Source: a virus. From it: DNA of 64,000 nt. The notes below the pieces were generated by a model. The model searched no databases. It saw nothing but the letters and a program-made list of their open reading frames with translations, and was not told the origin of the DNA. The stretch is from IMG/VR virus record IMGVR_UViG_3300046780_000484, positions 1 to 64,000 of that record; one strand, 5' to 3'. Shown here piece after piece: positions 10,283 through 64,000 of this stretch. How positions within the stretch are numbered: position 1 is the stretch's first letter; the number at the start of each line of letters is the position of its first letter. The translations under genes were made by a program, and so were the position numbers.

Positions 10283-11569
10283 TCACAGCCCCGGACCACC
10301 CTCCTGGGCCGTCAGCGGGCCGTCAGCGGGAAAACGGGAGTCGTCGGCAAGGGCCGCTTCGAGGGCCCGGCGGGTCCTGTCCTCGGCGTCGGGCATCAGG
10401 TGCGAGTAGGTCTTCAGCACCAGCGCGCCGCCGTCGTTGTGGCCGAGGTTCCCCGCGACCGTCCTCGGGTCCACCCCGGCGGAGATCAGCGTCGAGACGT
10501 ACAGGTGCCGCATCATGTGGCAGCCGTTCTCGCGGTCGATCTCAAGCCCGGCCGCCAGCAGCGCCGGCCGCCAGACGTGCGTATTGAACCCGTGCCGCCG
10601 GATCGGGGCACCCGCCCGCGTGGTGAACAGCAGATCGGCGGTCACCATCCGGCCGTGGCGCCGGTCCCCCGGCTCGTGCCACGGCAGCGTCACCGCCACG
10701 GCGGGGAACGCGGCCAGGTGCGCGGCCAGGGCCTCGGCCGTCGGGGCGGCCAGCGGCACGTCGCGCTCCTTCTTCCCCTTCGGCGGGGCGAAGTGCGGGC
10801 GCCCGCCGACAAGTTTGACCTGCTGCCGGATATTCACCTGCCGCCGCAGGAAGTTGATCTCGTCAACGGACAGGCCGAAGATCTCCGACTGCCGCAGCCC
10901 GAGCCCGGTCCCCGCGTCCACCACGGCGGCGAGGCGTCGCGGGAGCGCCGCGCGGACCGCGGCGGCCTGCGGGCGCGTCCAGGGCTTGAGGCGGCGGTGC
11001 GTCGCCTGGGGCAGCTGCCGGGCGAGCCCCGCGCAGGGGTTCACGCTGACGCGCCCGTCCAGCGCGGCGGCGAGCATGACTGAGTTCAGGTGGGTGAAGA
11101 CCTTGGCGACGGTCGACGGGGCCAGCCTTAGCCCGGCGAGCCACGCCTTGATCAGCGACGGGCGGCCGGCGAGTTCGTCCAGCCTTTTCATGCCGAGATC
11201 GGGGAAGACGTGCAGCCGCATCCGGGTCTCGACGGCCTCGCGGGTCACCGTGTCGAAGGTCTGCGCCTTCAGCCATTCCTCGGCGTACTTCCGCAGCGTG
11301 ATCCGGCCCGCGTCGGGGTCGCGGTAGGTGCCGCGCTTGAGGTCGGCGTCGACCTCGGTCTTGAAGGCTTCCGCGGCGGCCTTCTTATCGAACGACCGGC
11401 TGCGCTCGCTGCCGTCGGGGTCCTCGTAGCGGACCCGCCAGCGGCGGCCCGTGCCGTTGCGGGGTCGCGCTTCCTTTGCCTGCTTCCCGTCCGGCCCTGC
11501 GGCGGTGCGGAACCAGCGGTCCTCGATGTGGCTAATCGGGCTCACCTGCCTTCTCGTCCGTGTCCTCAC
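10283..11569 (-). CDS. int: Tyrosine recombinase / phage integrase
   Basis: 428 aa, site-specific recombinase for lysogeny. An N-terminal AP2-like arm-binding segment (RWRVRYEDPDGSERSRSF) is followed by a SAM-like core-binding domain (TLRKYAEEWLKAQ) and the catalytic domain. The catalytic domain has Arg in GLRQSEI (about residue 228), His-x-x-Arg in HMMRHLYVS (about 351), His in LGHND and the nucleophile Tyr in TYSHLM (about 386). All required residues are present, so it should be active. The GTG at 11569 lies inside the upstream repressor gene; a GTG at 11545 is an alternative start. Co-transcription with the repressor is likely. Confidence 0.95.
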   Translation of the reverse strand: MRTRTRRQVSPISHIEDRWFRTAAGPDGKQAKEARPRNGTGRRWRVRYEDPDGSERSRSFDKKAAAEAFKTEVDADLKRGTYRDPDAGRITLRKYAEEWLKAQTFDTVTREAVETRMRLHVFPDLGMKRLDELAGRPSLIKAWLAGLRLAPSTVAKVFTHLNSVMLAAALDGRVSVNPCAGLARQLPQATHRRLKPWTRPQAAAVRAALPRRLAAVVDAGTGLGLRQSEIFGLSVDEINFLRRQVNIRQQVKLVGGRPHFAPPKGKKERDVPLAAPTAEALAAHLAAFPAVAVTLPWHEPGDRRHGRMVTADLLFTTRAGAPIRRHGFNTHVWRPALLAAGLEIDRENGCHMMRHLYVSTLISAGVDPRTVAGNLGHNDGGALVLKTYSHLMPDAEDRTRRALEAALADDSRFPADGPLTAQEGGPGL

Positions 11570-27770: not shown

Positions 27771-28523
27771 GTGACCAAAGCCATTTGCGCAGTTGACGAC
27801 TGCGACAAGATAGCGATTGCGCGCGGGTGGTGCGCCAGGCACTACCAGAGCTGGAAGAAGTACAGTGACCCGGTAAAGAGCACCCTGCGGCAGGCAGATT
27901 TCACATGCTCGGCAGATGGCTGCGACAGCCCCGCGAAGACCACGGGCTTGTGCATAAAGCACTACACGCGCCAACTGCGGAACGGTGACCCGCTCGCGGT
28001 TCAGTACATCCGGGGGGACGACCGCGCCCGGTTCGAGTCCTACGTGGACCGCTCGGAAGGCCCGGACGCCTGCCATCCGTGGACCGGGGGGCAGTGCACG
28101 GGCGGTTACGGCCAGATCAGCATCAAGGGCGCACTGCAACTGGTGCACATCGCGGCCTGGGAGTTCGAGCGCGGCCCGAAGCCCCTAGGAACGGACATCG
28201 ACCACGAGTGCCACAATCAAGCCATCCGCGATGGCGCCTGCAAGCCGGGAATCTGCCCGCACCGGCTCTGCTGCAACGCCGCGCACCTGATCTCAAGGAC
28301 GCGGCGAGAACACGCCGATGCCACGGAGTGCTCATACCGCACGCGAGGCAGCCGCGTGAATACCGCTAAGGTGACCGAAACTCAGGTGCAGGAAATCCGC
28401 AGGCTGCTGGCAGCGGACGTCATGCCGCAGATCCGCATTGCCGAGTTGTATGACATCAGCCCGAACGCGATCTCCCGTATCAAGCTCGGGCAGACGTGGA
28501 CGTGGCTTCCCCCGGAGCCGTGA
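27771..28523 (+). CDS. Zinc-finger HNH homing endonuclease
   Basis: 250 aa. Two similar N-terminal Cys/His units (CAVDDC ... GWCARHY and CSADGC ... GLCIKHY) are followed by an HNH core: VHIAAWEFERG, DIDHECHN, CCNAAHLISRTRREHA. The C-terminus (IRIAELYDISPNAISRIKLGQTW) is a helix-turn-helix typical of homing nucleases. Encoded on the plus strand inside the minus-strand tail genes, with its own promoter: a free-standing selfish gene. Confidence 0.88.
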   Translation: MTKAICAVDDCDKIAIARGWCARHYQSWKKYSDPVKSTLRQADFTCSADGCDSPAKTTGLCIKHYTRQLRNGDPLAVQYIRGDDRARFESYVDRSEGPDACHPWTGGQCTGGYGQISIKGALQLVHIAAWEFERGPKPLGTDIDHECHNQAIRDGACKPGICPHRLCCNAAHLISRTRREHADATECSYRTRGSRVNTAKVTETQVQEIRRLLAADVMPQIRIAELYDISPNAISRIKLGQTWTWLPPEP

Positions 28524-33717: not shown

Positions 33718-33870
33718 TTGACATCCTCCTTGCGTAATACAAGGATTCCCGGCGGCGCTCATGCGGCACCTGCCAGAGGTTCACGCAACCGCCTCCCGGC
33801 AAGCCGGGGACTCGGCGCTGTGCGCCTGCGCGTGCTGTTAAGGCCGGCTGCCCGCCGGGCCTTCCGCTCA
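33698..33870 (-). ncRNA. Predicted omega RNA (TnpB guide RNA)
   Basis: TnpB guide RNAs derive from the 3' end of tnpB and the element's right end. Here the scaffold should end at the GAGGATGTCAA terminus (33718), followed by a guide from flanking DNA (about 33717 to 33698). The hairpin TCCTTG-N7-CAAGGA lies just upstream. The 5' boundary is not visible and is arbitrary. Expression is not shown. Confidence 0.45.
33718..33758 (-). mobile_element. IS200/IS605-family right end (RE)
   Basis: After the tnpB stop the minus strand reads GGGAATCCTTG, a 7-nt loop, CAAGGAGGATGTCAA, the classic terminal hairpin of IS605/IS1341-type elements. The stem is CAAGGA/TCCTTG at 33740-33745 and 33727-33732. The element end is placed at the final TCAA (33718). 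The left end was not located; no tnpA is present, so the element is non-autonomous. Confidence 0.7.
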
Positions 33871-35042
33871 ATATTCAGAGCGGCATTCTTGTCCGCGTGA
33901 TCGGTGTGGCCGCATGCGGTGCAGGCGAACTCCCGCCCGCAGCCGGGTCTACTTTTGGGATCCACTGTCCCGCATGCCGAGCACGTTTGAGACGTGAACG
34001 GCGCGGGAACCACCCGCAGTTCGCTCCCGAACAGGGGAGCCTTGTACTCCAACTGGCGGCGCCGTTCGTAAGGGATATTGTCCAGGATCGCCCGGTTGAG
34101 AGCCGCCTTCTGGCGGATGTTCTTACCGGGAGCGTCGGCAGTACCCTTCGCGCTTGCCGTCATCCTCATCACCCGCAAGTCCTCGATGCCGACGTAGCCG
34201 TGGTTTTTGGCGAGGTCGGTCGTGAGCTTGTGGGTGAAGTCGAGCCTGCGCCGCGCTTGCCGACCGCGCAGATCAGCGATAGCGGCGTACGTCTTGCGGA
34301 GACGACTGGAGTACCGGCCGCCGTTGTGCTTCTTTGCATAGGCGAGCTGCCGCCGCGCCCGGCGCTCCAATCCAAGCAGCCGTTTCTGCTCACCCGGCGT
34401 GAGAGTCGGAGGCATCAGCCGGGGCGCATCCTCGTCGGAGACGTAGGCTGCGCAGGTAGTGCCGAAGTCCACCCCGCAACCCGGCTTCTCGTTTGCCGGA
34501 GCGGCCTTGCGGCCCGTTGCGACACCGACGACGAGATGCCATATGCCCGCACCGTTCACCTTGACCGTTGCGTTCCGCAGTTCACCGCCGAGCGATCGGG
34601 ACCAGCGGAACCGCACCCATCCGATCTTCGGGAGCCGGATTTCGCTCCAGTGTCGGTTCAGCCGCCGTATCTTCAGATCCTGGCCGGTGAACGGGACGGC
34701 AAGGATCTTGCTGCGCTTCTTGCGCTCGGGGGCACCCGCCAGATGTCGCGGGTTCCACCAGTTGTCGTAGGCGCGGTCAAGATGCCTGAGGATCTGGTGT
34801 GCGCTCTGGGCTGGCATGTCGGTCAGCCAGGGCAGGTCGGCGCGGGCCTGGGTTAGGTAGGCACTCTGATCGAAGGCGCGCAAGGTGCGCCGTCGCTGTT
34901 CCCAGACGAACCGGCGCTGCTCCAGCGCGAGATTCCAGACAGTGCGGCACATGTGACCCCAGGCAGTCAAGCGTTCCGCTTGATCTGGTTCTGGGTACAG
35001 GCGATACTTCCGCGCAGAGTCTGCCTTGCGAGTCTCGCTCAC
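33759..35042 (-). CDS. tnpB: TnpB RNA-guided endonuclease (IS605 OrfB family)
   Basis: 427 aa. N-terminal OrfB_IS605 segment (RKYRLYPEPDQAERLTAWGHMCRTVWN), then a RuvC core with Asp in GVDFG (about residue 190), Glu in GIEDL (about 285) and Asp in HADKNAALNI (about 383). The zinc finger C-x2-C ... C-x2-C (TCSACG ... ACTACG) lies between the last two. All catalytic residues are present, so it may be an active guide-dependent nuclease. GTG 35042 overlaps the stop of an upstream DNA methyltransferase by 4 bp, suggesting co-translation. No TnpA transposase is nearby. Confidence 0.93.
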   Translation of the reverse strand: MSETRKADSARKYRLYPEPDQAERLTAWGHMCRTVWNLALEQRRFVWEQRRRTLRAFDQSAYLTQARADLPWLTDMPAQSAHQILRHLDRAYDNWWNPRHLAGAPERKKRSKILAVPFTGQDLKIRRLNRHWSEIRLPKIGWVRFRWSRSLGGELRNATVKVNGAGIWHLVVGVATGRKAAPANEKPGCGVDFGTTCAAYVSDEDAPRLMPPTLTPGEQKRLLGLERRARRQLAYAKKHNGGRYSSRLRKTYAAIADLRGRQARRRLDFTHKLTTDLAKNHGYVGIEDLRVMRMTASAKGTADAPGKNIRQKAALNRAILDNIPYERRRQLEYKAPLFGSELRVVPAPFTSQTCSACGTVDPKSRPGCGREFACTACGHTDHADKNAALNIERKARRAAGLNSTRRRTAPSPRLAGRRLREPLAGAA

Positions 35043-35776
35043 GACGTCTCATCGAGCCGGTCGAATAGGCTTCTTTGCGCGCTCATGACTCCGACCAGCA
35101 GGTAGGAGTGGGCCCGGTGTGCTCGCTGCTGGCGTTTGGTTGGCTGCGGCATCCGAGAGGTGTTGACCAAGACGAACATGTCGGCCAGGTCCACGCCCGC
35201 CGCCGCCATGATCCGGATGACGTCAAGATGCACGAGGTGCAGCCGGTGGTTGTAGGTCATGTCCTGGCACTTGACCATCAGCCGCCCGGTGCCGGGAGCC
35301 AAGACGCGAGCGCACTCGCGAACACCGTCCCGGTACAGGTCCAGTACGTCGTTCATAGTCTGACGCCCGGTGGTGTTCAGCGCGTAACTGCGGCCAACCC
35401 CGAAGTTGCGCTCAGGCTTGCCGTGTACCGGCTGGTAGGGCGGGTCGAACACCGCTACGTCAACGCTGCCATCGGCGTATGGCAGGTTCCGGCAGTCGGC
35501 CACGAGGTCAGCCTTCGCGGTCGGCCGGATATCGCTGCACGTCACCTCAAGCTTGGGGGCGGATCTCCAGAACACGCCCTCGCCGCAAGTCACATCGACC
35601 ACCCGGTCATCCGAGGTGATCCACAGTTGGGCGACTTGCTCAATCAGCCGGTCATTGGTGCCGACAACCGCCGACGTGACCACATCGGGCGTTACTCCGG
35701 GGCAGATGACTGGCGCTCCATAGGCAACCGGATCTGTCGGAGTATATCGCCCGCGTAGCCCGCTACCAGGTGTCAT
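35039..35776 (-). CDS. SAM-dependent DNA methyltransferase (DPPY motif)
   Basis: 245 aa. VVDVTCGEGVFW is the SAM-binding motif I and VAVFDPPYQPVHG is the catalytic motif IV of N6-adenine or N4-cytosine methylases. The order I then IV is visible. Between them, SDIRPTAKADLVADCRNLPYADGS resembles motifs II-III. ATG 35776 is chosen because TACACT lies exactly 6 nt upstream; longer frames lack a site. No restriction enzyme partner is seen, so it is an orphan methylase. Its stop overlaps the tnpB start. Confidence 0.85.
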   Translation of the reverse strand: MTPGSGLRGRYTPTDPVAYGAPVICPGVTPDVVTSAVVGTNDRLIEQVAQLWITSDDRVVDVTCGEGVFWRSAPKLEVTCSDIRPTAKADLVADCRNLPYADGSVDVAVFDPPYQPVHGKPERNFGVGRSYALNTTGRQTMNDVLDLYRDGVRECARVLAPGTGRLMVKCQDMTYNHRLHLVHLDVIRIMAAAGVDLADMFVLVNTSRMPQPTKRQQRAHRAHSYLLVGVMSAQRSLFDRLDETS

Positions 35777-37672: not shown

Positions 37673-38464
37673 GTGAAAGAAATCCCCTTGCGTGGTCGCC
37701 ACGGGCAAGGTCGCGTCATGCTTGTGGATGACGAAGACTACGAGCTAATGTCCCGCATTAAATGGCACGCCATCGTCGATAACAACGGCTGCCTGAGCGT
37801 TCAGGCACGGATCTCTGCCCACAACTTCCTTACCGGCTACGCGCTGACCGATCACGCCAACGGGAACCCTCTGGACAACACCCGAGGGAACCTGCGCGAT
37901 GCCACATCCAGGCAGAACAGCTGGAACAGGCGACTCAGGAGCGACTCCCGAACTGGCTATAAAGGCGTCAACTCAAGGCGGGGCGGGCGAGGGTACGTCG
38001 CACGGATCCTCGTAGACGGGAAGCGTAAAACGCTGGGATGGTTTCACGATCCGATCAACGCCGCGAAGGCGTACGACGCGGCAGCCCGTGAAGCCTTCGG
38101 GGAGTTCGCCCGGCTTAATTTCCCGGATAGCGAAGACCTTCCGGACGCCCGGGAGTCTCGGGTTTCTCGTACGCAGCGCCGCGTCCGGGAGACGATTTCC
38201 GGAATGGAGGATCAGCCCAGCGGAAAGCAGTCCAAGTACTCGGAGGCCAGCTGGAACCGGCCCTACCGCGGGGGAACGCGGGCAGGCTTCAAGGGGGTCA
38301 ACTGGTCAGGCAGGAGATGGCAGGCTCGCATCATGAAAGACGGGAAGCGGCACTTCCTCGGCACCTACGACACCGCCGAGGAGGCGGCCCGAGCGTATGA
38401 CGCCGCCGCTTGCACCCTGTTCGGGGGTCATGCGCGGTTGAACTTCCCAGGGGAGGCGGCGTGA
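37673..38464 (+). CDS. HNH homing endonuclease with two AP2 domains
   Basis: 263 aa. Residues 1-85 carry a degenerate HNH nuclease core: VDDEDYELMSRIKWHAI and DHANGNPLDNTRGNLRDAT. Two AP2 DNA-binding domains follow: TGYKGVNSRRGGRGYVARI ... AAKAYDAAAREAFGEFARLN and AGFKGVNWSGRRWQARI ... AARAYDAAACTLFGGHARLN. Tandem AP2 suggests a duplicated recognition module. Plus-strand gene inside the late region, own leaderless promoter, ending 14 bp before the tail chaperone GT stop on the other strand. Confidence 0.9.
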   Translation: MKEIPLRGRHGQGRVMLVDDEDYELMSRIKWHAIVDNNGCLSVQARISAHNFLTGYALTDHANGNPLDNTRGNLRDATSRQNSWNRRLRSDSRTGYKGVNSRRGGRGYVARILVDGKRKTLGWFHDPINAAKAYDAAAREAFGEFARLNFPDSEDLPDARESRVSRTQRRVRETISGMEDQPSGKQSKYSEASWNRPYRGGTRAGFKGVNWSGRRWQARIMKDGKRHFLGTYDTAEEAARAYDAAACTLFGGHARLNFPGEAA

Positions 38465-52481: not shown

Positions 52482-52787
52482 CTAGGTGTAGTTGACGAGG
52501 GACCCGTAGCCGATCGAGACCGTGGAGGACCCGGCCCCGGTGCAGGCGGTGATCGGGGTCGACGCCGGCACCTGGCACTGGGTCAGGACCACGGTCCCGC
52601 CTGTCGGGATCCCGAAGCTGGCCACTGAGGTGGCGACGTTGGAGGCTCCCATCCCGATGAAGATGGTGGCCGTCCCGGAGTTGGTGACCACCAGGTCCCG
52701 CTTGTATCCGGCAGCGGTCGTGTAGACCGTGCCCGCGGTGGTGGTGACGGCGGTGTTGTTGACGGCCCAGGCTGCGGCGATGGCCAC
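52482..52787 (-). CDS. Small virion decoration-like beta protein
   Basis: 101 aa from GTG 52787 preceded by AAGGGAG. KRDLVVTNSGTATIFIGMG and GTVVLTQCQVPASTPI parallel the decoration protein at 51928. Probably a capsid surface protein of the phage. Confidence 0.65.
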   Translation of the reverse strand: MAIAAAWAVNNTAVTTTAGTVYTTAAGYKRDLVVTNSGTATIFIGMGASNVATSVASFGIPTGGTVVLTQCQVPASTPITACTGAGSSTVSIGYGSLVNYT

Positions 52788-52855
52788 ACAGGCTCCCTTG
52801 CTGTTCGGTGAGTTGCGAGAGTTGCGCGGCAAGCGCGCCGCTATTCAGTTGTCGT

Positions 52856-53214: not shown

Positions 53215-54345
53215 TCAGAACAGGGTGGCGGCCAGAGGCTTCCCGTGGACGGCGAGGTCAGCCAGGGCCTTTTTGCGGGCGAGGGCGACCGGAGCGTCAT
53301 CGTAGAGGGCAGCAAGGAGGCGCAGGACGCGCACGGTCCCGCCCACCTGCACGCACCACGTCGTCGTGCTCGGCTTCTTCGGGGTGGCGTGCACGTTAGT
53401 GCCGATGAGCGCGTTGACCCAGGCCTCATATGCCTTCGCCACGGATTCGCTACCGGTCAGTTGCGTGAAGACGCCGCGCTCGTTGATGGTGATGCTGCCA
53501 TCCCCGTCGACCAGTCCGCGCCAGTAGTGCGGCATCAGGACGGCAGGGCCATCCCAGGGCTCAAGCACATCCGTCTTGCGGCGAATAATGCCGTTGTTCA
53601 CCAGGGCTTTAGCCAGCGGAGGCGAGCAGACGGCGAGCATTGAGACGGGAACCATCTTCCCGTAGGACTCTTCCTCGAAATCGCGGATCGGACGCCGGGC
53701 CTTCAGTGACCCGTGAAGCGTTACGAGGTGGTCCCGGTCCTTGCGGGCCAACTTGACCTGAAGACGCAAGTACTCCCGGGTCCCCCTGGTGAATCCCGTT
53801 ACGCATCCGTCTGCGCCAAGGAAGCCGAGCCAGTAGGCCTTGTCGGGGGTGTCGATCTGGTCGAAGTAGCCGGGGTTGTCGCAGGCGATCCGCTCCCTGC
53901 GCCCGATGCCCAGTTCTTCCAGCACGTTGTAGACGCTGGATGAATGGCAGCCGAGCACGCGCCCGATCTCCGGGGCATCCATGCCGCTCTCGTACAGGCC
54001 GGGGACGCGTTCGCGGAGTTCATCGGCGAGCCGGTGCGGCTTCCGGTCTGGCACGCTGCCATGACGGCGCAGCACCGCTGTGATGGTGTGCTCAGTACGC
54101 CCCGACCTGCTGACGATCTCAGTAAGCGGCACGCCGTCTGCGTACAACTGGAGGATCTTCGCCTCATCCTCGGGCGAGGTCCGGGTGTTGAGTTGCCCAC
54201 GGTCGGCAGCAACGCCCTCCTTGCGAAGGGCGTTGCCGACCGTGTACGCGCTGAAGCCGGTTTCATCGGCAATCTCTTGCCATTTCATCCCGGCCTGATA
54301 CATGGCGGCGATACGCCGCCGGTCCTCTGGAGTAGTGCGTCTCAT
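53215..54345 (-). CDS. LAGLIDADG homing endonuclease with three helix-turn-helix units
   Basis: 376 aa. The first 150 residues have three HTH units (EIADETGFSAYTVGNAL, TEIVSRSGRTEHTITAVL, EIGRVLGCHSSSVYNVL). Two LAGLIDADG motifs follow: YWLGFLGADGCV (about 185) and YWRGLVDGDGSI (about 290), each with the catalytic Asp. It should cut a long site. It lies 40 bp after capsid exon 2, outside the intron, with a TAAGCT box 6 nt before its ATG and a hairpin over the start. Likely partner of the capsid intron (collaborative homing). Confidence 0.9.
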   Translation of the reverse strand: MRRTTPEDRRRIAAMYQAGMKWQEIADETGFSAYTVGNALRKEGVAADRGQLNTRTSPEDEAKILQLYADGVPLTEIVSRSGRTEHTITAVLRRHGSVPDRKPHRLADELRERVPGLYESGMDAPEIGRVLGCHSSSVYNVLEELGIGRRERIACDNPGYFDQIDTPDKAYWLGFLGADGCVTGFTRGTREYLRLQVKLARKDRDHLVTLHGSLKARRPIRDFEEESYGKMVPVSMLAVCSPPLAKALVNNGIIRRKTDVLEPWDGPAVLMPHYWRGLVDGDGSITINERGVFTQLTGSESVAKAYEAWVNALIGTNVHATPKKPSTTTWCVQVGGTVRVLRLLAALYDDAPVALARKKALADLAVHGKPLAATLF

Positions 54346-54384: not shown

Positions 54385-56544
54385 CTAACTGTAGGGGCTG
54401 ATGTCGCTCACCTGGAGACCCTGAAGGATTCCAGAGTAGAACGGCGCATGTGCGACCAAAGACCCCAAAAGGAATATCGAGTACCTAAAGGTCGCATCTA
54501 TGACAGGCCACGCGCAAGGTGTTACATCTACCCAAAACGGACAGATGGGCGGGTCATTTCTGCCGCGCCTCTGCATCTTCGCTGGTCAATGCAGTTCGGA
54601 ACGTCTCACGATCTGCCGTCGCCCGGCCCGTAATGCCTCGGGCCGACGCCGGTTACACAGATCCGGCACATACGCTCTCTGCACACCGCCAGGCATCGAC
54701 GGTGCTCACGATTCCCCTGTTGCTACAGCCGGGGTTTCCTGATCAGTGCCGTTATTCGACGGAGGTCACCCTCCGAAGCCGCCTGATTACTAGTTGACGG
54801 AAACGTAGTCCTGTACGCAGGTCATCTCCCACGCGTTGTCCACGTGGCTCCACGTCTGCGGGAGCTGGTAGGACATCAGCAGCGCCGTGCCCTGGGACAT
54901 CCAGGGGTGCACGGTCAGCTTCACGGTCGACCTCGTGACGGGGTTCACGAACTCCGCCACGGCAGCCCCGGCGCGAATGCCGGAGATCTGGTCCTGGGAG
55001 ATGTTGAGAAGGTAGTTCAGGCCCGCGCCCTGGGTGAGCATGTCGTTCGCGAGCCGCATCAGGTCGCCGCCGTCGGCGACGATCTCGGACGGGTCAGCCC
55101 GGTACACGCCCGGGGTGACGTTGTTCATGCCGTTGTTCTCCCACAGCCCGTCGAGCGCCGTGAAGATGGCGTTCGTGCTGAGGTGGGTCCCGACGGACTG
55201 GTTGACGTAGCCGCCCTGCCACACGTTCGCGGCCTCGAACCCGACGTTCGCGTACGGGCCGGAGCCGGTGTCGGACAGGCCGGACAGCACCGGGATGAGG
55301 CCTTCCATCCGCTGGCTGGAGCCCGTCCCCGTGTCCGTCGCCGACGCGGTGTTCGCCGTGGCGACCGCGCCCTGGATGGTGAACCGGATACCGCCCACCG
55401 AGTTCGCGGTCTGCTTGCCCGTGGTCGTGACGCCGGCCTGCACCGACGTGCCGACCTGGAGGAACCCGTTCGCCCTCGAGGCCGAGGAGTTCGTCGACAC
55501 GTAGATGTTGTACTGCTGCGCCCCGGCGACCGGGGTGATCACGACGTCGACGACGTTGCCGGTGGTCAGCGGGGTGTCCGAGGTGAACGAGCTGACCGTG
55601 GTCTCGCCGAAGTAGTTCAGCGCGGTCACCGCGACGGCGAAGTGGGTGCCGCCGCCTGTGATGGCGGTCTCGTTGGAGCCCGCCACACGCTGGGTGATGG
55701 CAGGCGCTGCGGGGGTCGCGAGGTTCTGGGACGAACCCGCGATCATCTGATATTCCTCGCCCAGCATCATCTCTTGCAGCAGCACGAGATTAGCGAGGGC
55801 GGAGATGTCCTCAAATCCCTGACCCTGGAACTGGGCCAACCAGCTGAGCGACTCACTGAGCCCAAAAAACCTGTAGGGCACGTTGAGCCGGTACTGGGTC
55901 TGGGACCCGGCGCCGGGGATGTTGAGCGGCCAGGTCGAGCCGATGCCCGTCTGGCCGGACTGGACGAGTTCCGGCAGGGAGATGTCGATGACACCCTGGC
56001 CGCCGGTCTGGCTGCCGGAGATGCCCAGGAGGCCGTAGACCTGCTTGGACAGGCCCTGGCCGGCCGGGCGGGGGAACTTGTTGCGGAAGAGCGTGTACAC
56101 GGGGTACACGAGCCGCGAAGGCGCCGCGAGATCGAACGGAACGAGCCCGTACGGCGCACCCGCCGTCCCGAGGTTCTGCGCGGTGAAGTTCTTCCGCACG
56201 TCGGCGTCGGCGCGAAGCCGGTACGCCAGCGGGGCGAACTGCGGGTTCGTCGCGAACTCCGTCGCCAGGCTGCCGATCACCGTGTCCGAGTCGTGGCGGC
56301 CCTGGACCGTCGCGGCCTTGGTCCGCAGCATCAGGTCATGGCTCTTGGTGAAGATCGTCCCGCCGTCGGACGCGTCGTCCAGGGGGATGCCCTTGGTGAC
56401 GTGGCCGACGCCCTTGACGGCCTTGGCCGCGGACTTGGTGATCGCTTCCTCGAAGTTCCTGCCGGACGGGGGGGCCATGCGCGGCGCTCCCCCTGCCCCC
56501 ATCTGGGGGCCTGCCGCCTCATCGGCGGCGTACGTTACTGCCAC
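54385..56544 (-). CDS. Major capsid protein, split by a group I intron
   Basis: Exon 1 is 56544-54797, exon 2 is 54514-54385; joined they are 1878 nt, 625 aa, in frame. The unspliced frame stops at 54790 soon after QDYVSV. Splicing restores QDYVSVAWPVIDATFRYS and the end SGILQGLQVSDISPYS, a normal C-terminus for HK97-fold capsid proteins of actinophages. The N-terminus holds FRNKFPRPAGQGLSKQVYG. A variable middle domain (about residues 280-390) has repeated Thr/Ala beta segments. Lies after a protease-scaffold gene, the usual order. Confidence 0.88.
54515..54796 (-). ncRNA. Group I self-splicing intron, 282 nt
   Basis: Exon 1 ends in U and the intron ends in G, as group I introns need. P1: exon CCGU and intron C1 pair with GGCGG at intron 14-18, U.G at the splice site. 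P2: GGAGG-GUGA-CCUCC. P3: CGGCAC with GUGCCG. P5: CCCC...GGGG. The Q-like element AAUCGUGAGC is present. P7: GAGCGU with ACGUUC, flanking P3' and P8 (GAUCUG/CAGAUC) in the right order. P9: CUGCAU/AUGCAG. No ORF is inside; the LAGLIDADG gene lies just outside. Confidence 0.88.
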
Positions 56545-60811: not shown

Positions 60812-63800
60812 CTACTTACCCTCTTCCATCTGCGCGTGCTGTGCGGGCCAGTAGCCGAGCGCCCTGTGGTGCATGAGATTTGCGTAGCCCTTGGCCTGCT
60901 CGTCGGTCATGTGGGCGTGCTCTTTCAGCAGCGCGACCGCGCGCATGAAGTCGCCGTCGGTACCCCAGGCAATTTCGTCGGCGTAGGCGAAGTCCGTCGG
61001 GCCGCCGTGGGCTTCGTGCGTCCAGTACTCGCGTAGCGTCTCGGCGTCACCCTTGTTCGCGGGGTCGTCGCCCTGATGCAACTGACTGCTGTGCGTCTGC
61101 AGCGCTTGGGGCATCCACCGGGCCGGGACCGTCCCCACGTAGGCGAGGACCGGCTTGCCGAGCTTGAAGTGCCGCGCCATTCCCCGGTGATGGCCGTCGA
61201 TGATGATCTCCCGGCCGTCGGGGTGGTTCGCCTGGTGGACGAGGACCGACGGGTTGGTGTGCGCCCCGCCCCTCGCGATGTCCTTGGCGAACCGCTGTAC
61301 CGCTTCCGGCTGGTGGCTGGCGGCCCACGAGTCGATGTCGTCGTCGTCGACGCGCGACCAGGGAACGTTGACGGGCCCGACCCATGTCGAATGCTTGACC
61401 CATTCCAGCGCGGAGTCCGGGAAATTGCCCTCTAGCTGGGCATATACGTGCCGCCATTCCACCGGGTTCGCGTCGGTGACGTGCTGCGCGCCCTTGGGGA
61501 GGTCGTGGACGACGTTGCTGCCGGCCTCCGGGGACCATTCCTCCACCGTCTCGGCCGGGTCGAACGCCTCAGGCTCGGCGGTGTGCGGCTTGTACGGCTC
61601 CGGGGTTCGTGCCGGAACGGAGCCGACTACCGGGTGCCCGGAGTCGTTCGCGGACTTCACCCCGGACGGCGGCACCCCGGTACGGCCGCCGACGGGAGAG
61701 GCGGCAGGGGTGAGCGTGTTCTGCGGCGCAGGCCACATCTCGTCGTGCGCGTACCCCTGGTTCGGGAACGCCACGGCGGGAGGGTTTGGCTTGCGCCCGC
61801 GCGAGGGCATCTCCCCGTCATCCCCGCCGCGGGGCTCGAGCGTGTCGTGCGGCTCCGGCTCGGCCATGTCGTCGGACCAGCGCGGCGGTTCCCCGCCCGC
61901 GCTTCCGGCATCGCCTGGAACGGCCCCAGGGCCCGCGTCAGGCCATTCCGAGCCGTCCGCCCTGTGCGGATAGGGCCAGCGGCTGCCGACCGCCTGGAGC
62001 GCCTGCGAGGCCGGGGTGAGGGTGAGGACTTCCCCGTTCGCGTTCACCATGCGCTGGAGGGCCTTGGTGACGTGCTCCCGCAGGGTGATGCCGTGCTCCC
62101 AGTCCTCGCGGAACTTCGGGGCCAGGTCCAGGGCGGCGATCTCCTTGCGGCGGAACCACGCCGCGCCCCGCGTCTCGTCCGGGGTGGCCCCGTCGAGGGT
62201 GGGGTGGAAGTACGCGGTGTCGCACAGCCACAGGTACACCTGCGTCTTGCCGTCGTCCTCCACATGGTGGAAGGTCCCCGCGATCCGCAGTTCAGGGAAC
62301 TGGCCGATCTCCTCGGCCGTCTCCCGGAGCACAGCGGTCCACGAGTCCTCACCCACGTGCGGCTTCCCGCCCGGCATGCCCCAGGTGCCGTCGGGGCGCT
62401 GCTGGAGCAGGAACCGCCACTTGCCGTCCTCGTCGCGGGCGCGCAGCAGCAGCCAGACGAGGCGCGTCTCGTCGTCTACGGCGGCGGATTTACCCAGGTG
62501 CGCCAGCGGCGGCTCAGCTTCCACGCCTGCTGGCGCAGGTACGCATCGGCAAGCCGGATGGACCAGCCCCAGTACGCCCCCCGCCGAGAAGACGGCATCG
62601 AGCGGGATTTCTCCGTCATCGGCGGCGTCCTTGCACAAGTCACAGGCGTTAGGCGACAGCAGCAGGTGCTTGAACTGCACCCCGTGGTCGCGGTAGCACT
62701 GGATGGCCGCGCTGTTGACCGCCCTGGCCACTTCGGTCCGGGCGATGAGTTCCGCGCGGACGCTGTTGTTCCCCAGCCCGGTGCGGGCGACCTGCTGGAG
62801 CCAGTGCTCCCCCTCGGAGCCGATGAACCCGGCCAGCGCCTCAGGGTCCTCCCCCTTGGCGCTGAAGTCCGCGGGAGCGCCCGTGACGAGGGACTTGGCC
62901 GCCGCGTAGCCGAGGTGCCACGCTTCGGTCCACAGGGGCGCCAGGACGCCGGAGAAGACGTCCCGCACCTCGTCGGAGATCAGGTCCCGCAGGGTGGCGT
63001 TGCTGACGTACATGCCCCCGGTGGCGGCCTTGCGGCGCAGGTCCGAGCCTTTGGCCTCGGCGTCGTGGAACGCCTGCCCGATGAGGTTCTTGTACGCGCC
63101 GACCAGGCCGAGGTCGCGCTCCCAGCCGGGCCAGTGCGCGGCGGCCTTCGTCACCTCGCCTGCCGGCGGGTATGAATCAGGGACGGGCCGGGGGCTGCCG
63201 CAAGCGACCGGCCCGTCGTCGTCAGCCTTGAGGCAGATGTCCCCGGCGCGTTCCACAGCCGTGTCGATCAGCACGCCCCTGGCGATGTCCTCGGCGATCA
63301 TCCCGAGGGCGCGTTCCGGGATGTGCTCCGTCACCCACGTGCTGATCTGCCGGCCCTTGCGCAGGTGCCGGGCCAGCGCGCCGAGCTCGGAGTCGACGGC
63401 CTTCTTGCGGCTGCCGGCGACGGACGACCGTGACGGGGTGCCCCCCGTGCGCGGGCCGGGCGACTGGATCGCTCCGGCGGCTGCGGAGTGGGCGGGGGTG
63501 ACAGACTCCCGGTGCGGCGACACTGGTGCGGGATGCGAGCCGTTCGGCCGGGTCTGGCCGCCGCGGCGGACGGCCGGCTGGCTGTTCCGGGTCCGCGACG
63601 ACGTGGTGCGCTGCCCGGAGTTCGTCCCCTGGCCCCCGGCGCCGCCGCCCTGCATGTTCGCGATGAGCTGCGGGGCCATCGAGAACGGGATCGGCCCCTG
63701 CGCCGTGAACACGACCGGCTCGCCCGTCTCCTGCAGGCCCCACGGGGGCATGTCCAGCCGGTCCCGCACCTCGTCGATCGAGGAGATGCCGTTCTGCACC

Positions 63801-64000
63801 TGCTCGACGCCCAGCTGCGTGATCGCGGCCTTGTCCTCGTCGTCCTGCAGGCCCTCGAAGGAGAACTTCATGTCGTGCTGGCCGCAGATGTCCTGCAGGA
63901 CGTAGTTGGCGATGCCGCACAGGGTCATCAGCAGCGGCTTGGTGGACTTGCGGGACTTCGGGTCCCGGGAGGCCTGCGCGCCGAGCTTGATGCCCGACGC
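60812..64000 (-). CDS. Portal-MuF-Nudix-ParB-like fusion, 5' partial
   Basis: At least 1062 aa; the frame is open at the right edge. Residue numbers count from ATG 63928. The start (NYVLQDICGQHDMKFSFEGL, IDEVRDRLDMPPWG) is a portal C-terminus. A MuF head-morphogenesis part follows (about 390-463: ARTEVARAVNSAAIQCYRDHG, SPNACDLCKDA, VHPACRCVP). Next is a Nudix domain (about 495-600) with a perfect box GKPHVGEDSWTAVLRETAEEIG written here by key residues G-E-REx2EExG. Last is a ParB/Srx-like domain (about 820-935) with IIIDGHHRG. Domain linkers are Pro/Gly rich. Such a four-part fusion is unusual. Confidence 0.85.
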   Translation of the reverse strand, partial: ASGIKLGAQASRDPKSRKSTKPLLMTLCGIANYVLQDICGQHDMKFSFEGLQDDEDKAAITQLGVEQVQNGISSIDEVRDRLDMPPWGLQETGEPVVFTAQGPIPFSMAPQLIANMQGGGAGGQGTNSGQRTTSSRTRNSQPAVRRGGQTRPNGSHPAPVSPHRESVTPAHSAAAGAIQSPGPRTGGTPSRSSVAGSRKKAVDSELGALARHLRKGRQISTWVTEHIPERALGMIAEDIARGVLIDTAVERAGDICLKADDDGPVACGSPRPVPDSYPPAGEVTKAAAHWPGWERDLGLVGAYKNLIGQAFHDAEAKGSDLRRKAATGGMYVSNATLRDLISDEVRDVFSGVLAPLWTEAWHLGYAAAKSLVTGAPADFSAKGEDPEALAGFIGSEGEHWLQQVARTGLGNNSVRAELIARTEVARAVNSAAIQCYRDHGVQFKHLLLSPNACDLCKDAADDGEIPLDAVFSAGGVLGLVHPACRCVPAPAGVEAEPPLAHLGKSAAVDDETRLVWLLLRARDEDGKWRFLLQQRPDGTWGMPGGKPHVGEDSWTAVLRETAEEIGQFPELRIAGTFHHVEDDGKTQVYLWLCDTAYFHPTLDGATPDETRGAAWFRRKEIAALDLAPKFREDWEHGITLREHVTKALQRMVNANGEVLTLTPASQALQAVGSRWPYPHRADGSEWPDAGPGAVPGDAGSAGGEPPRWSDDMAEPEPHDTLEPRGGDDGEMPSRGRKPNPPAVAFPNQGYAHDEMWPAPQNTLTPAASPVGGRTGVPPSGVKSANDSGHPVVGSVPARTPEPYKPHTAEPEAFDPAETVEEWSPEAGSNVVHDLPKGAQHVTDANPVEWRHVYAQLEGNFPDSALEWVKHSTWVGPVNVPWSRVDDDDIDSWAASHQPEAVQRFAKDIARGGAHTNPSVLVHQANHPDGREIIIDGHHRGMARHFKLGKPVLAYVGTVPARWMPQALQTHSSQLHQGDDPANKGDAETLREYWTHEAHGGPTDFAYADEIAWGTDGDFMRAVALLKEHAHMTDEQAKGYANLMHHRALGYWPAQHAQMEEGK

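What the first reader, a model, noticed from the sequence alone, without database searches (positions are those of the whole stretch)
54385..56544. Major capsid gene interrupted by a group I intron
The capsid frame stops at 54790 just before a conserved-looking C-terminus, which resumes at 54514. Removing 282 nt joins the exons in frame (1878 nt) and restores VSVAWPVIDATFRYS. The 5' exon ends in U, the intron ends in G, and P1, P2, P3, P5, P7, P8 and P9 pairings can be drawn in the correct order by eye, including a Q-like AAUCGUGAGC. A capsid gene intron in an actinophage is unusual as far as I know.
Basis: partly seen in the sequence, partly recalled or inferred. Interest (0 to 1): 0.92.

Follow-up and report, generated by a model that had tools for sequence, protein, structure and literature searches.

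The report
Self-splicing intron inside a capsid gene
The gene for the main shell protein of this uncultured phage is cut in two by a 282-base self-splicing RNA (a compact group I intron), one of a family of such introns that turns up again and again in phage capsid genes, sometimes several to a gene, and that the standard RNA database does not recognise.

Summary
Confirmed, and larger than reported. Removing window 54796-54515 (282 nt, - strand) joins the two capsid exons in frame. 71 relatives carry the same junction uninterrupted, and two others carry a related ~290-nt insert at the identical position. Rfam finds nothing. However, 12 related inserts fit a group I fold (P2-P9) in 97.9% of 632 cells, with double changes in 39 of 53 pairs (shuffled mean 17, slid about 9). 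The guide sequence changes with the 5' exon (CCGU/GCGG, CCAU/GUGG). A covariance model of the family recovers the BAKA and LittleE mycobacteriophage introns, whose splicing was shown experimentally (PMC3706429). So it is a group I intron, and a capsid-gene intron in an actinophage has precedent. The phage's own host was not established.

Beyond the report: (1) all members share an unannotated covarying loop-loop pairing, L6-L8; (2) these introns sit almost only in major capsid genes, of at least three capsid families, with up to six insertions in one gene; (3) this intron has no endonuclease, but a LAGLIDADG homing endonuclease gene lies 39 nt after the capsid stop, at a spot empty in relatives, the layout of 'collaborative homing'. 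Splicing here, homing and insertion route are inferred, not shown.

The parts
54797..56544 (-). major capsid protein, 5' exon (GTG start at 56544)
   Evidence: phrog_13692 E 4e-42; tblastn to 'major head protein' of Alicyclobacillus phage MMB025, placed after portal, small terminase and protease genes; 71 uninterrupted homologues run through the junction
54515..54796 (-). group I intron, 282 nt, no ORF of its own
   Evidence: absent from 71 relatives, present at the same position in L065 and L073; covariation of 10 helices; R1 model 139.5 bits, but the window is one of the model's 12 building sequences
54385..54514 (-). major capsid protein, 3' exon (130 nt including TAG)
   Evidence: restores the C-terminus seen in all intact homologues
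54797..54800 (-). P1, exon side: CCGU, last U is the splice-site U
   Evidence: pairs with IGS GCGG with a terminal U.G
54779..54782 (-). internal guide sequence GCGG (P1, intron side)
   Evidence: changes to GUGG where the 5' exon is CCAU; own-exon pairing is reached in 0.02% of 5000 exon shuffles
54760..54775 (-). P2 hairpin with GUGA tetraloop
   Evidence: 6 of 6 pairs with double changes
54664..54751 (-). P3 (54751-54746 with 54669-54664)
   Evidence: 72 of 72 cells paired, 4 of 6 pairs with double changes
54706..54742 (-). P4 (54742-54738/54710-54706) and P5 (54734-54732/54716-54714), containing the Q element AAUCGUGAGC
   Evidence: 58/60 and 35/36 cells paired
54685..54703 (-). P6 hairpin (54703-54698/54690-54685)
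   Evidence: 69/71 cells paired, 6 of 6 pairs with double changes
54633..54696 (-). L6-L8 loop-loop pairing AUGCCU/AGGCAU (54696-54691 with 54638-54633)
   Evidence: 69/71 cells paired, many different pairings across the family including BAKA
54599..54677 (-). P7, guanosine-site helix (54677-54672 with 54604-54599; R and S elements)
   Evidence: 69/72 cells paired; GAGCGU/ACGUUC here against GACUGU/ACAGUC in most members
54610..54663 (-). P8 (54663-54658 with 54615-54610)
   Evidence: 70/70 cells paired, 5 of 6 pairs with double changes
54548..54594 (-). P9 (54594-54589/54576-54571) and P9.1 (54569-54567/54550-54548)
   Evidence: 71/72 and 36/36 cells paired; same 3' domain in the BAKA and LittleE introns
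53215..54345 (-). free-standing homing endonuclease gene (HTH domains + LAGLIDADG_3), 39 nt after the capsid stop codon
   Evidence: Pfam LAGLIDADG_3 E 1e-5, phrog_4645 E 6e-43; inserted between MCP and the gene 52482-52832, whose homologue follows MCP directly in L004, L005, L018; endonuclease homologues right after MCP in L008 and L070

Best explanation
Window 54796-54515 (-) is a compact group I intron without an ORF, interrupting the major capsid gene about 43 codons before its stop codon. In the transcript it folds into P1-P9, guanosine attacks after the U of the 5' exon (paired with the guide sequence GCGG), and the exons are then joined so that the full-length capsid protein is made; the unspliced message would give a protein lacking the conserved last 42 residues. 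The fold and boundaries are shown by comparison; splicing itself is inferred, from homology to introns spliced in vivo in mycobacteriophages BAKA and LittleE. It belongs to an intron family that colonises phage major capsid genes. The neighbouring free-standing LAGLIDADG endonuclease gene may help spread intron, 3' exon and itself into intronless capsid alleles (collaborative homing; inferred, about even odds). The confidence given here is for the spliced group I intron, not for the homing step.
For: Exact in-frame junction and 71 intronless homologues. Homologous inserts at the same site in L065 and L073, and at other capsid sites in L039, L084, L087, L091. 12-sequence alignment: 97.9% of cells paired, 39/53 pairs with double changes, covariation score 0.573 against 0.183 shuffled and at most 0.091 slid. 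U at -1 and final G in all inserts where both junctions are seen; guide sequence covaries with exon, 47 bp summed against 35.7 shuffled, reached in 0.02% of shuffles. R1 model finds the experimentally spliced BAKA (E 6e-10) and LittleE (E 1e-8) introns (splicing by RT-PCR, PMC3706429). Other introns in homologous capsid genes pass Rfam's own Intron_gpI cut-off (L090, L057, L091). Endonuclease next door at a position empty in relatives.
Against: No RF00028 hit in the window. P1 is only 4 bp, P10 was not convincing, and the minimum-energy fold is little better than shuffles (z -1.3). No RNA or protein data from this phage. For the homing part: L008 has the endonuclease without any intron, and L070 has it without an intron at this site, so the two elements are separable.
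Confidence: 0.95

Rival explanations
1. Ribosomes bypass the 282-nt insert (as in T4 gene 60) or the insert is removed at protein level; no RNA splicing.
For: The insert lies inside a coding gene and is structured.
Against: The unspliced frame stops 2 codons into the insert, so it cannot be an intein. The insert has all group I helices with covariation, a guide sequence matched to its exon, and homology to introns proved to splice as RNA.
Confidence: 0.02
2. A decayed group I intron that no longer splices; the phage makes a capsid protein truncated at ...VSVN.
For: P4 has one non-standard pair and P7 carries a G.U pair in the window; Rfam does not see the intron.
Against: Nearly all core pairs of the window copy form, P7 changed on both sides to keep pairing (GAGCGU/ACGUUC), and exon 2 keeps an intact frame and conserved protein sequence. 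No intact homologue ends at VSVN, and even two distant phage capsid proteins continue well past this point.
Confidence: 0.03
3. The intron is real, but the neighbouring endonuclease has nothing to do with it: a free-standing selfish gene that happens to sit after the capsid gene.
For: Endonuclease homologues sit after MCP in L008 and L070, which lack an intron at this site; L065 and L073 carry the same-site intron, and no match to this endonuclease was found in the loci held for them.
Against: The same arrangement (ORF-less intron plus adjacent free-standing endonuclease that cuts the intron site) is documented for cyanophage S-PM2 psbA/F-CphI (PMC6083498). L008, with endonuclease but no intron, is the only one of 71 loci whose junction lost the T at -1, as a resistant site might.
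Confidence: 0.45
4. Regulated splicing: the intron keeps a share of capsid protein truncated (ending (L/V)N*) as a second functional form.
For: Several members at different sites stop in frame at (L/V)N*, some with a longer FSLN* tail, using TAG, TGA or TAA.
Against: Not universal (L039 site 581 reads on; L084, L090 and L091 differ), no natural short capsid form found, and an early in-frame stop is also seen in the LittleE intron (30 bp in, PMC11855218).
Confidence: 0.04

Closest known systems
Mycobacteriophage LittleE capsid-gene intron and BAKA/Optimus tail-gene intron (Cluster J, PMC3706429)
   Same: Group I introns in virion structural genes, U before and G at the end; core found by the R1 model (E 1e-8 and 6e-10); same 3' domain (P9, then GGCAGAAAUGACC, then GUAACA); L6/L8 loops complementary (CACAUU/AAUGUG). 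BAKA, like the window, has no internal endonuclease gene.
   Different: LittleE is 819 nt with an endonuclease ORF on the opposite strand; both sit in unrelated genes and are distant in sequence (32-37 bits against about 124-165 for most of the family).
Cyanophage S-PM2 psbA intron with free-standing endonuclease F-CphI (collaborative homing, PMC6083498)
   Same: ORF-less group I intron with a free-standing homing endonuclease gene next door.
   Different: Different gene and endonuclease family; cleavage at the intron site is proved there, only proposed here.
Rfam RF00028 Intron_gpI
   Same: Same helix order P1-P9, Q/R/S elements.
   Different: The window intron gives no hit even at E 10; several larger introns in homologous capsid genes do.
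Intron-rich Jug phages (PMC12363816)
   Same: Many short group I introns interrupting essential phage genes.
   Different: There the named examples are terL, nrdD and DNA polymerase genes, found with existing subtype models; here concentrated in capsid genes.
Intron-encoded endonuclease in the recombinase gene of Staphylococcus phage 812 and relatives
   Same: Closest annotated relatives of the window's endonuclease (28-30% over 75-79%).
   Different: Those are encoded inside an intron, this one is free-standing.

Membership tests
group I introns | Insertion absent from homologous genes, with removal restoring an intact reading frame | tested here: met
   71 uninterrupted junctions; 1878-nt frame
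group I introns | U ends the 5' exon and G ends the intron | tested here: met
   window and all relatives with both junctions seen
group I introns | P1 between 5' exon end and internal guide sequence with U.G at the splice site | tested here: met
   4 bp here, 3-5 bp in the 12 copies; covaries with exon
group I introns | Conserved core P3-P8 with crossing P3 and P7 | tested here: met
   covariation in P3, P4, P5, P6, P7, P8
group I introns | P10 with the 3' exon | tested here: inconclusive
   no convincing pairing found by eye
group I introns | Guanosine-dependent self-splicing | not testable with these tools
   needs RNA; related introns of BAKA and LittleE splice in vivo (PMC3706429)
Rfam RF00028 Intron_gpI | score at or above 50 bits | tested here: not met
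   no hit at gathering or at E up to 10
Intron family of BAKA/LittleE type (model R1) | significant match of a common core model | tested here: met
   BAKA 36.6 bits, LittleE 32.0 bits with a model built without them
Collaborative homing (F-CphI type) | ORF-less intron plus adjacent free-standing homing endonuclease gene | tested here: met
Collaborative homing (F-CphI type) | endonuclease cuts the intronless allele at the intron site, intron blocks cutting | not testable with these tools
   no biochemical data
Group I subgroup (IA1-IE) | best match among published subgroup models | not tested
   those models are not available here

The most novel reading that the evidence does not exclude
A clade of compact phage group I introns, marked by a covarying L6-L8 kissing pair and missed by Rfam, is specialised on major capsid genes: it has entered at least three unrelated capsid families and many sites within one family, moving between sites that share a short CCRU^ motif matched by the guide sequence, i.e. 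by RNA-guided reverse splicing as well as by endonuclease-driven homing.
Probability: 0.35. Interest if true: 0.78.

Novelty: new variant of a known kind. Interest (0 to 1): 0.62.

Why it matters
The capsid protein is normally among a phage's most abundant products, so each intron here must splice almost completely or cost virions. Genes with up to six insertions show how far that can be pushed and offer a natural test of splicing efficiency. The standard RNA model misses the family, so capsid genes carrying it are probably annotated as truncated or split in metagenomes. The L6-L8 pairing gives a testable structural rule, and the repeated CCRU sites give a way to ask whether group I introns spread to new sites by reverse splicing.

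Tried and rejected
Rfam on the window at gathering and E 10: negative. Single-sequence folding: z -1.3, uninformative. blastn of the region or intron against named phages: no match. MCP and the R-motif in 84,980 genomes: nothing, so host not established. AlphaFold of the intact homologue L002: mean pLDDT 45.9, only an internal beta-rich domain around residues 281-385 is confident, so the role of the C-terminal 42 residues could not be read from it. Idea that the intron supplies an alternative capsid C-terminus ((FS)LN*): no natural short capsid form seen, tail not universal; left as unexplained. P10: no convincing pairing. Intein: excluded by the immediate stop codon. Literature: the searches found neither this family nor an L6-L8 pairing described, but subscription papers are not held, so absence is weak evidence.

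Full report
Observation. On the - strand the capsid ORF runs 56544-54790 and ends QDYVSVN*. Removing 54796-54515 joins 1748 and 130 nt into an 1878-nt frame of 625 codons plus stop. A scan of viral contigs returned 79 loci with capsid relatives. In 71 loci the gene runs uninterrupted across residues 583/584; some are near-duplicates and some are interrupted elsewhere. Over the 29 bases around the junction, L002 differs from the window's spliced sequence at one. So the insertion is real and its boundaries are fixed by comparison.

The host gene. The ORF matches phrog_13692 and the 'major head protein' of Alicyclobacillus phage MMB025, where it follows portal, small terminase and protease genes. 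It is a major capsid protein family without a Pfam hit.

Group I intron. Rfam sees nothing here. But homologous inserts lie at the identical site in L065 (295 nt) and L073 (292 nt), and at other sites of the same gene in L039 (three copies), L065 (second copy), L084, L087 and L091, plus L081 (5' junction not seen) and L082, a different capsid gene. Aligned by sequence alone, the 12 copies were tested against a group I fold that I drew on the window copy: P2, P3, P4, P5, P6, P7, P8, P9, P9.1 and an L6-L8 contact. 97.9% of 632 cells pair; 39 of 53 pairs show changes on both sides (17 after shuffling); the covariation score is 0.573 against 0.183 shuffled and at most 0.091 when partners are slid. 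Because the structure was drawn from one of these sequences, the percentage paired is inflated against the slid control; the double changes are the stronger evidence. One row (L065_136) was entered one base out of register at both ends, outside all helices.

P1. Directly upstream of P2, most of the 12 copies examined have a guide sequence whose G faces the last U of the 5' exon: exon CCGU with GCGG, exon CCAU with GUGG, others 3-5 bp. Own-exon pairing sums to 47 bp, against 35.7 when exons are swapped; 0.02% of 5000 shuffles reach it.

Link to proven introns. Model R1 (core, 152 positions, built from the 12 copies) finds the BAKA tail intron (36.6 bits, E 5.7e-10) and the LittleE capsid intron (32.0 bits, E 1.1e-8), both spliced in infected cells by RT-PCR (PMC3706429). 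They share the 3' domain GAUGCAGA...GGCAGAAAUGACC...GUAACA. The window phage has one copy only.

L6-L8. The loop of P6 is complementary to the loop of P8 throughout the family: AUGCCU/AGGCAU (window), AUGCCC/GGGCAU, AUGCUC/GAGCAU, CGCUU/AAGCG, GCAUCU/AGAUGC, AUACU/AGUAU, and in distant relatives CACAUU/AAUGUG (BAKA), GUACUG/CAGUAC, GAUCUG/CAGAUC, CACCU/AGGUG. In single sequences such a match is only mildly unlikely (1-5% for most members, more for a few), and one distant copy (L118, lower intron) shows only 3 bp; the evidence is the covariation. I found no description of it in the papers held, which is weak evidence of novelty.

A capsid-gene habit. Two lie in the window's capsid family (L120), four in HK97-type Phage_capsid genes (L161 twice, L139, L172) and six in a Phage_capsid_4-like capsid gene (L118 twice, L145, L160, L132, L122); one (L139 11417) is in an unidentified gene. 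For L160 and L122 the assignment rests on likeness to the others, and Phage_capsid_4 scores are below its cut-off except in L132. L082 is a further Phage_capsid gene. Because the core model was trained on capsid-gene copies, some bias towards them cannot be excluded.

Many insertions per gene. The L039/L093 gene has insertions at residues about 142, 222, 262, 581, 597 and 623, the last one a few bases before the stop codon; four have clear model support. The L091/L094 gene has at least six, L065 three. Most of the larger insertions carry endonuclease ORFs; four of five examined are DUF559.

Turnover. The window intron is 63% identical to that of L065 at the same site, although the capsid proteins are about 80-84% identical, and 69-70% identical to copies in more distant genes or at other sites (L073_583, L087_597, L039_623). 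L073_583 and L087_597 are 84% identical at different sites whose exons both end UCCAU. Eight of 12 copies, or 4 of 8 distinct sites, follow CCRU; only 4.6% of T positions in intact capsid genes end such a motif (binomial 3e-4 for distinct sites). This fits guide-directed movement but does not prove it: homing to the same site inflates the count of copies, and the exon must match the guide for splicing in any case.

Endonuclease. 53215-54345 encodes a 376-aa protein with HTH domains and LAGLIDADG_3, 39 nt past the capsid stop. In L004, L005 and L018 the homologue of gene 52482-52832 comes directly after MCP; in L008 an endonuclease homologue sits between the two. L008 lacks the intron and alone among the 71 loci has lost T at -1 of the junction, one case only. 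The layout matches cyanophage S-PM2 (PMC6083498). I put collaborative homing at roughly even odds.

Verdict. Capsid-gene introns in actinophages were already known. New here are the unrecognised family, its L6-L8 contact and its concentration in capsid genes.

Noticed in passing
L039 5334-6290; L093; L091/L094: Capsid genes with about six insertions each, including three related introns within the last ~45 codons in L039, one of them a few bases before the stop codon.
   Followed up: partly
intron 5' ends: L065 5290, L073 6392, L087 1996 (-), L039 5652 and 6016, L081, window 54796: The unspliced frame ends in a similar short tail, (FS)LN* or VN*, at different sites, with TAG, TGA and TAA stops; not universal and unexplained.
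   Followed up: partly
L118 9780-10237 (-); L161 137-636 (-): Two introns in tandem about 300-350 nt apart in capsid genes of other families.
   Followed up: partly
33762-35045 (-): TnpB / IS605 OrfB-type protein (Cas12f1-like TNB domain) in the phage genome.
   Followed up: no
27771-28523 (+) and 37673-38464 (+): HNH_3 endonuclease and an AP2-domain protein, perhaps further free-standing homing endonuclease-type genes.
   Followed up: no
10286-11569 (-): Phage integrase family protein, so this phage may be temperate although no prophage relative of its capsid gene was found in bacterial genomes.
   Followed up: no
60812-63928 (-): Long protein combining a minor-head/morphogenesis-like region and a NUDIX hydrolase domain.
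   Followed up: no
L073 4595-5366: Insertion at capsid residue ~222 with a minus-strand ORF containing LAGILDADG, resembling the reverse-strand endonuclease in the LittleE intron.
   Followed up: no
L002 capsid residues ~281-385 (model m376cf07fd3b6): Confidently predicted beta-rich domain inside the otherwise poorly predicted capsid protein.
   Followed up: no
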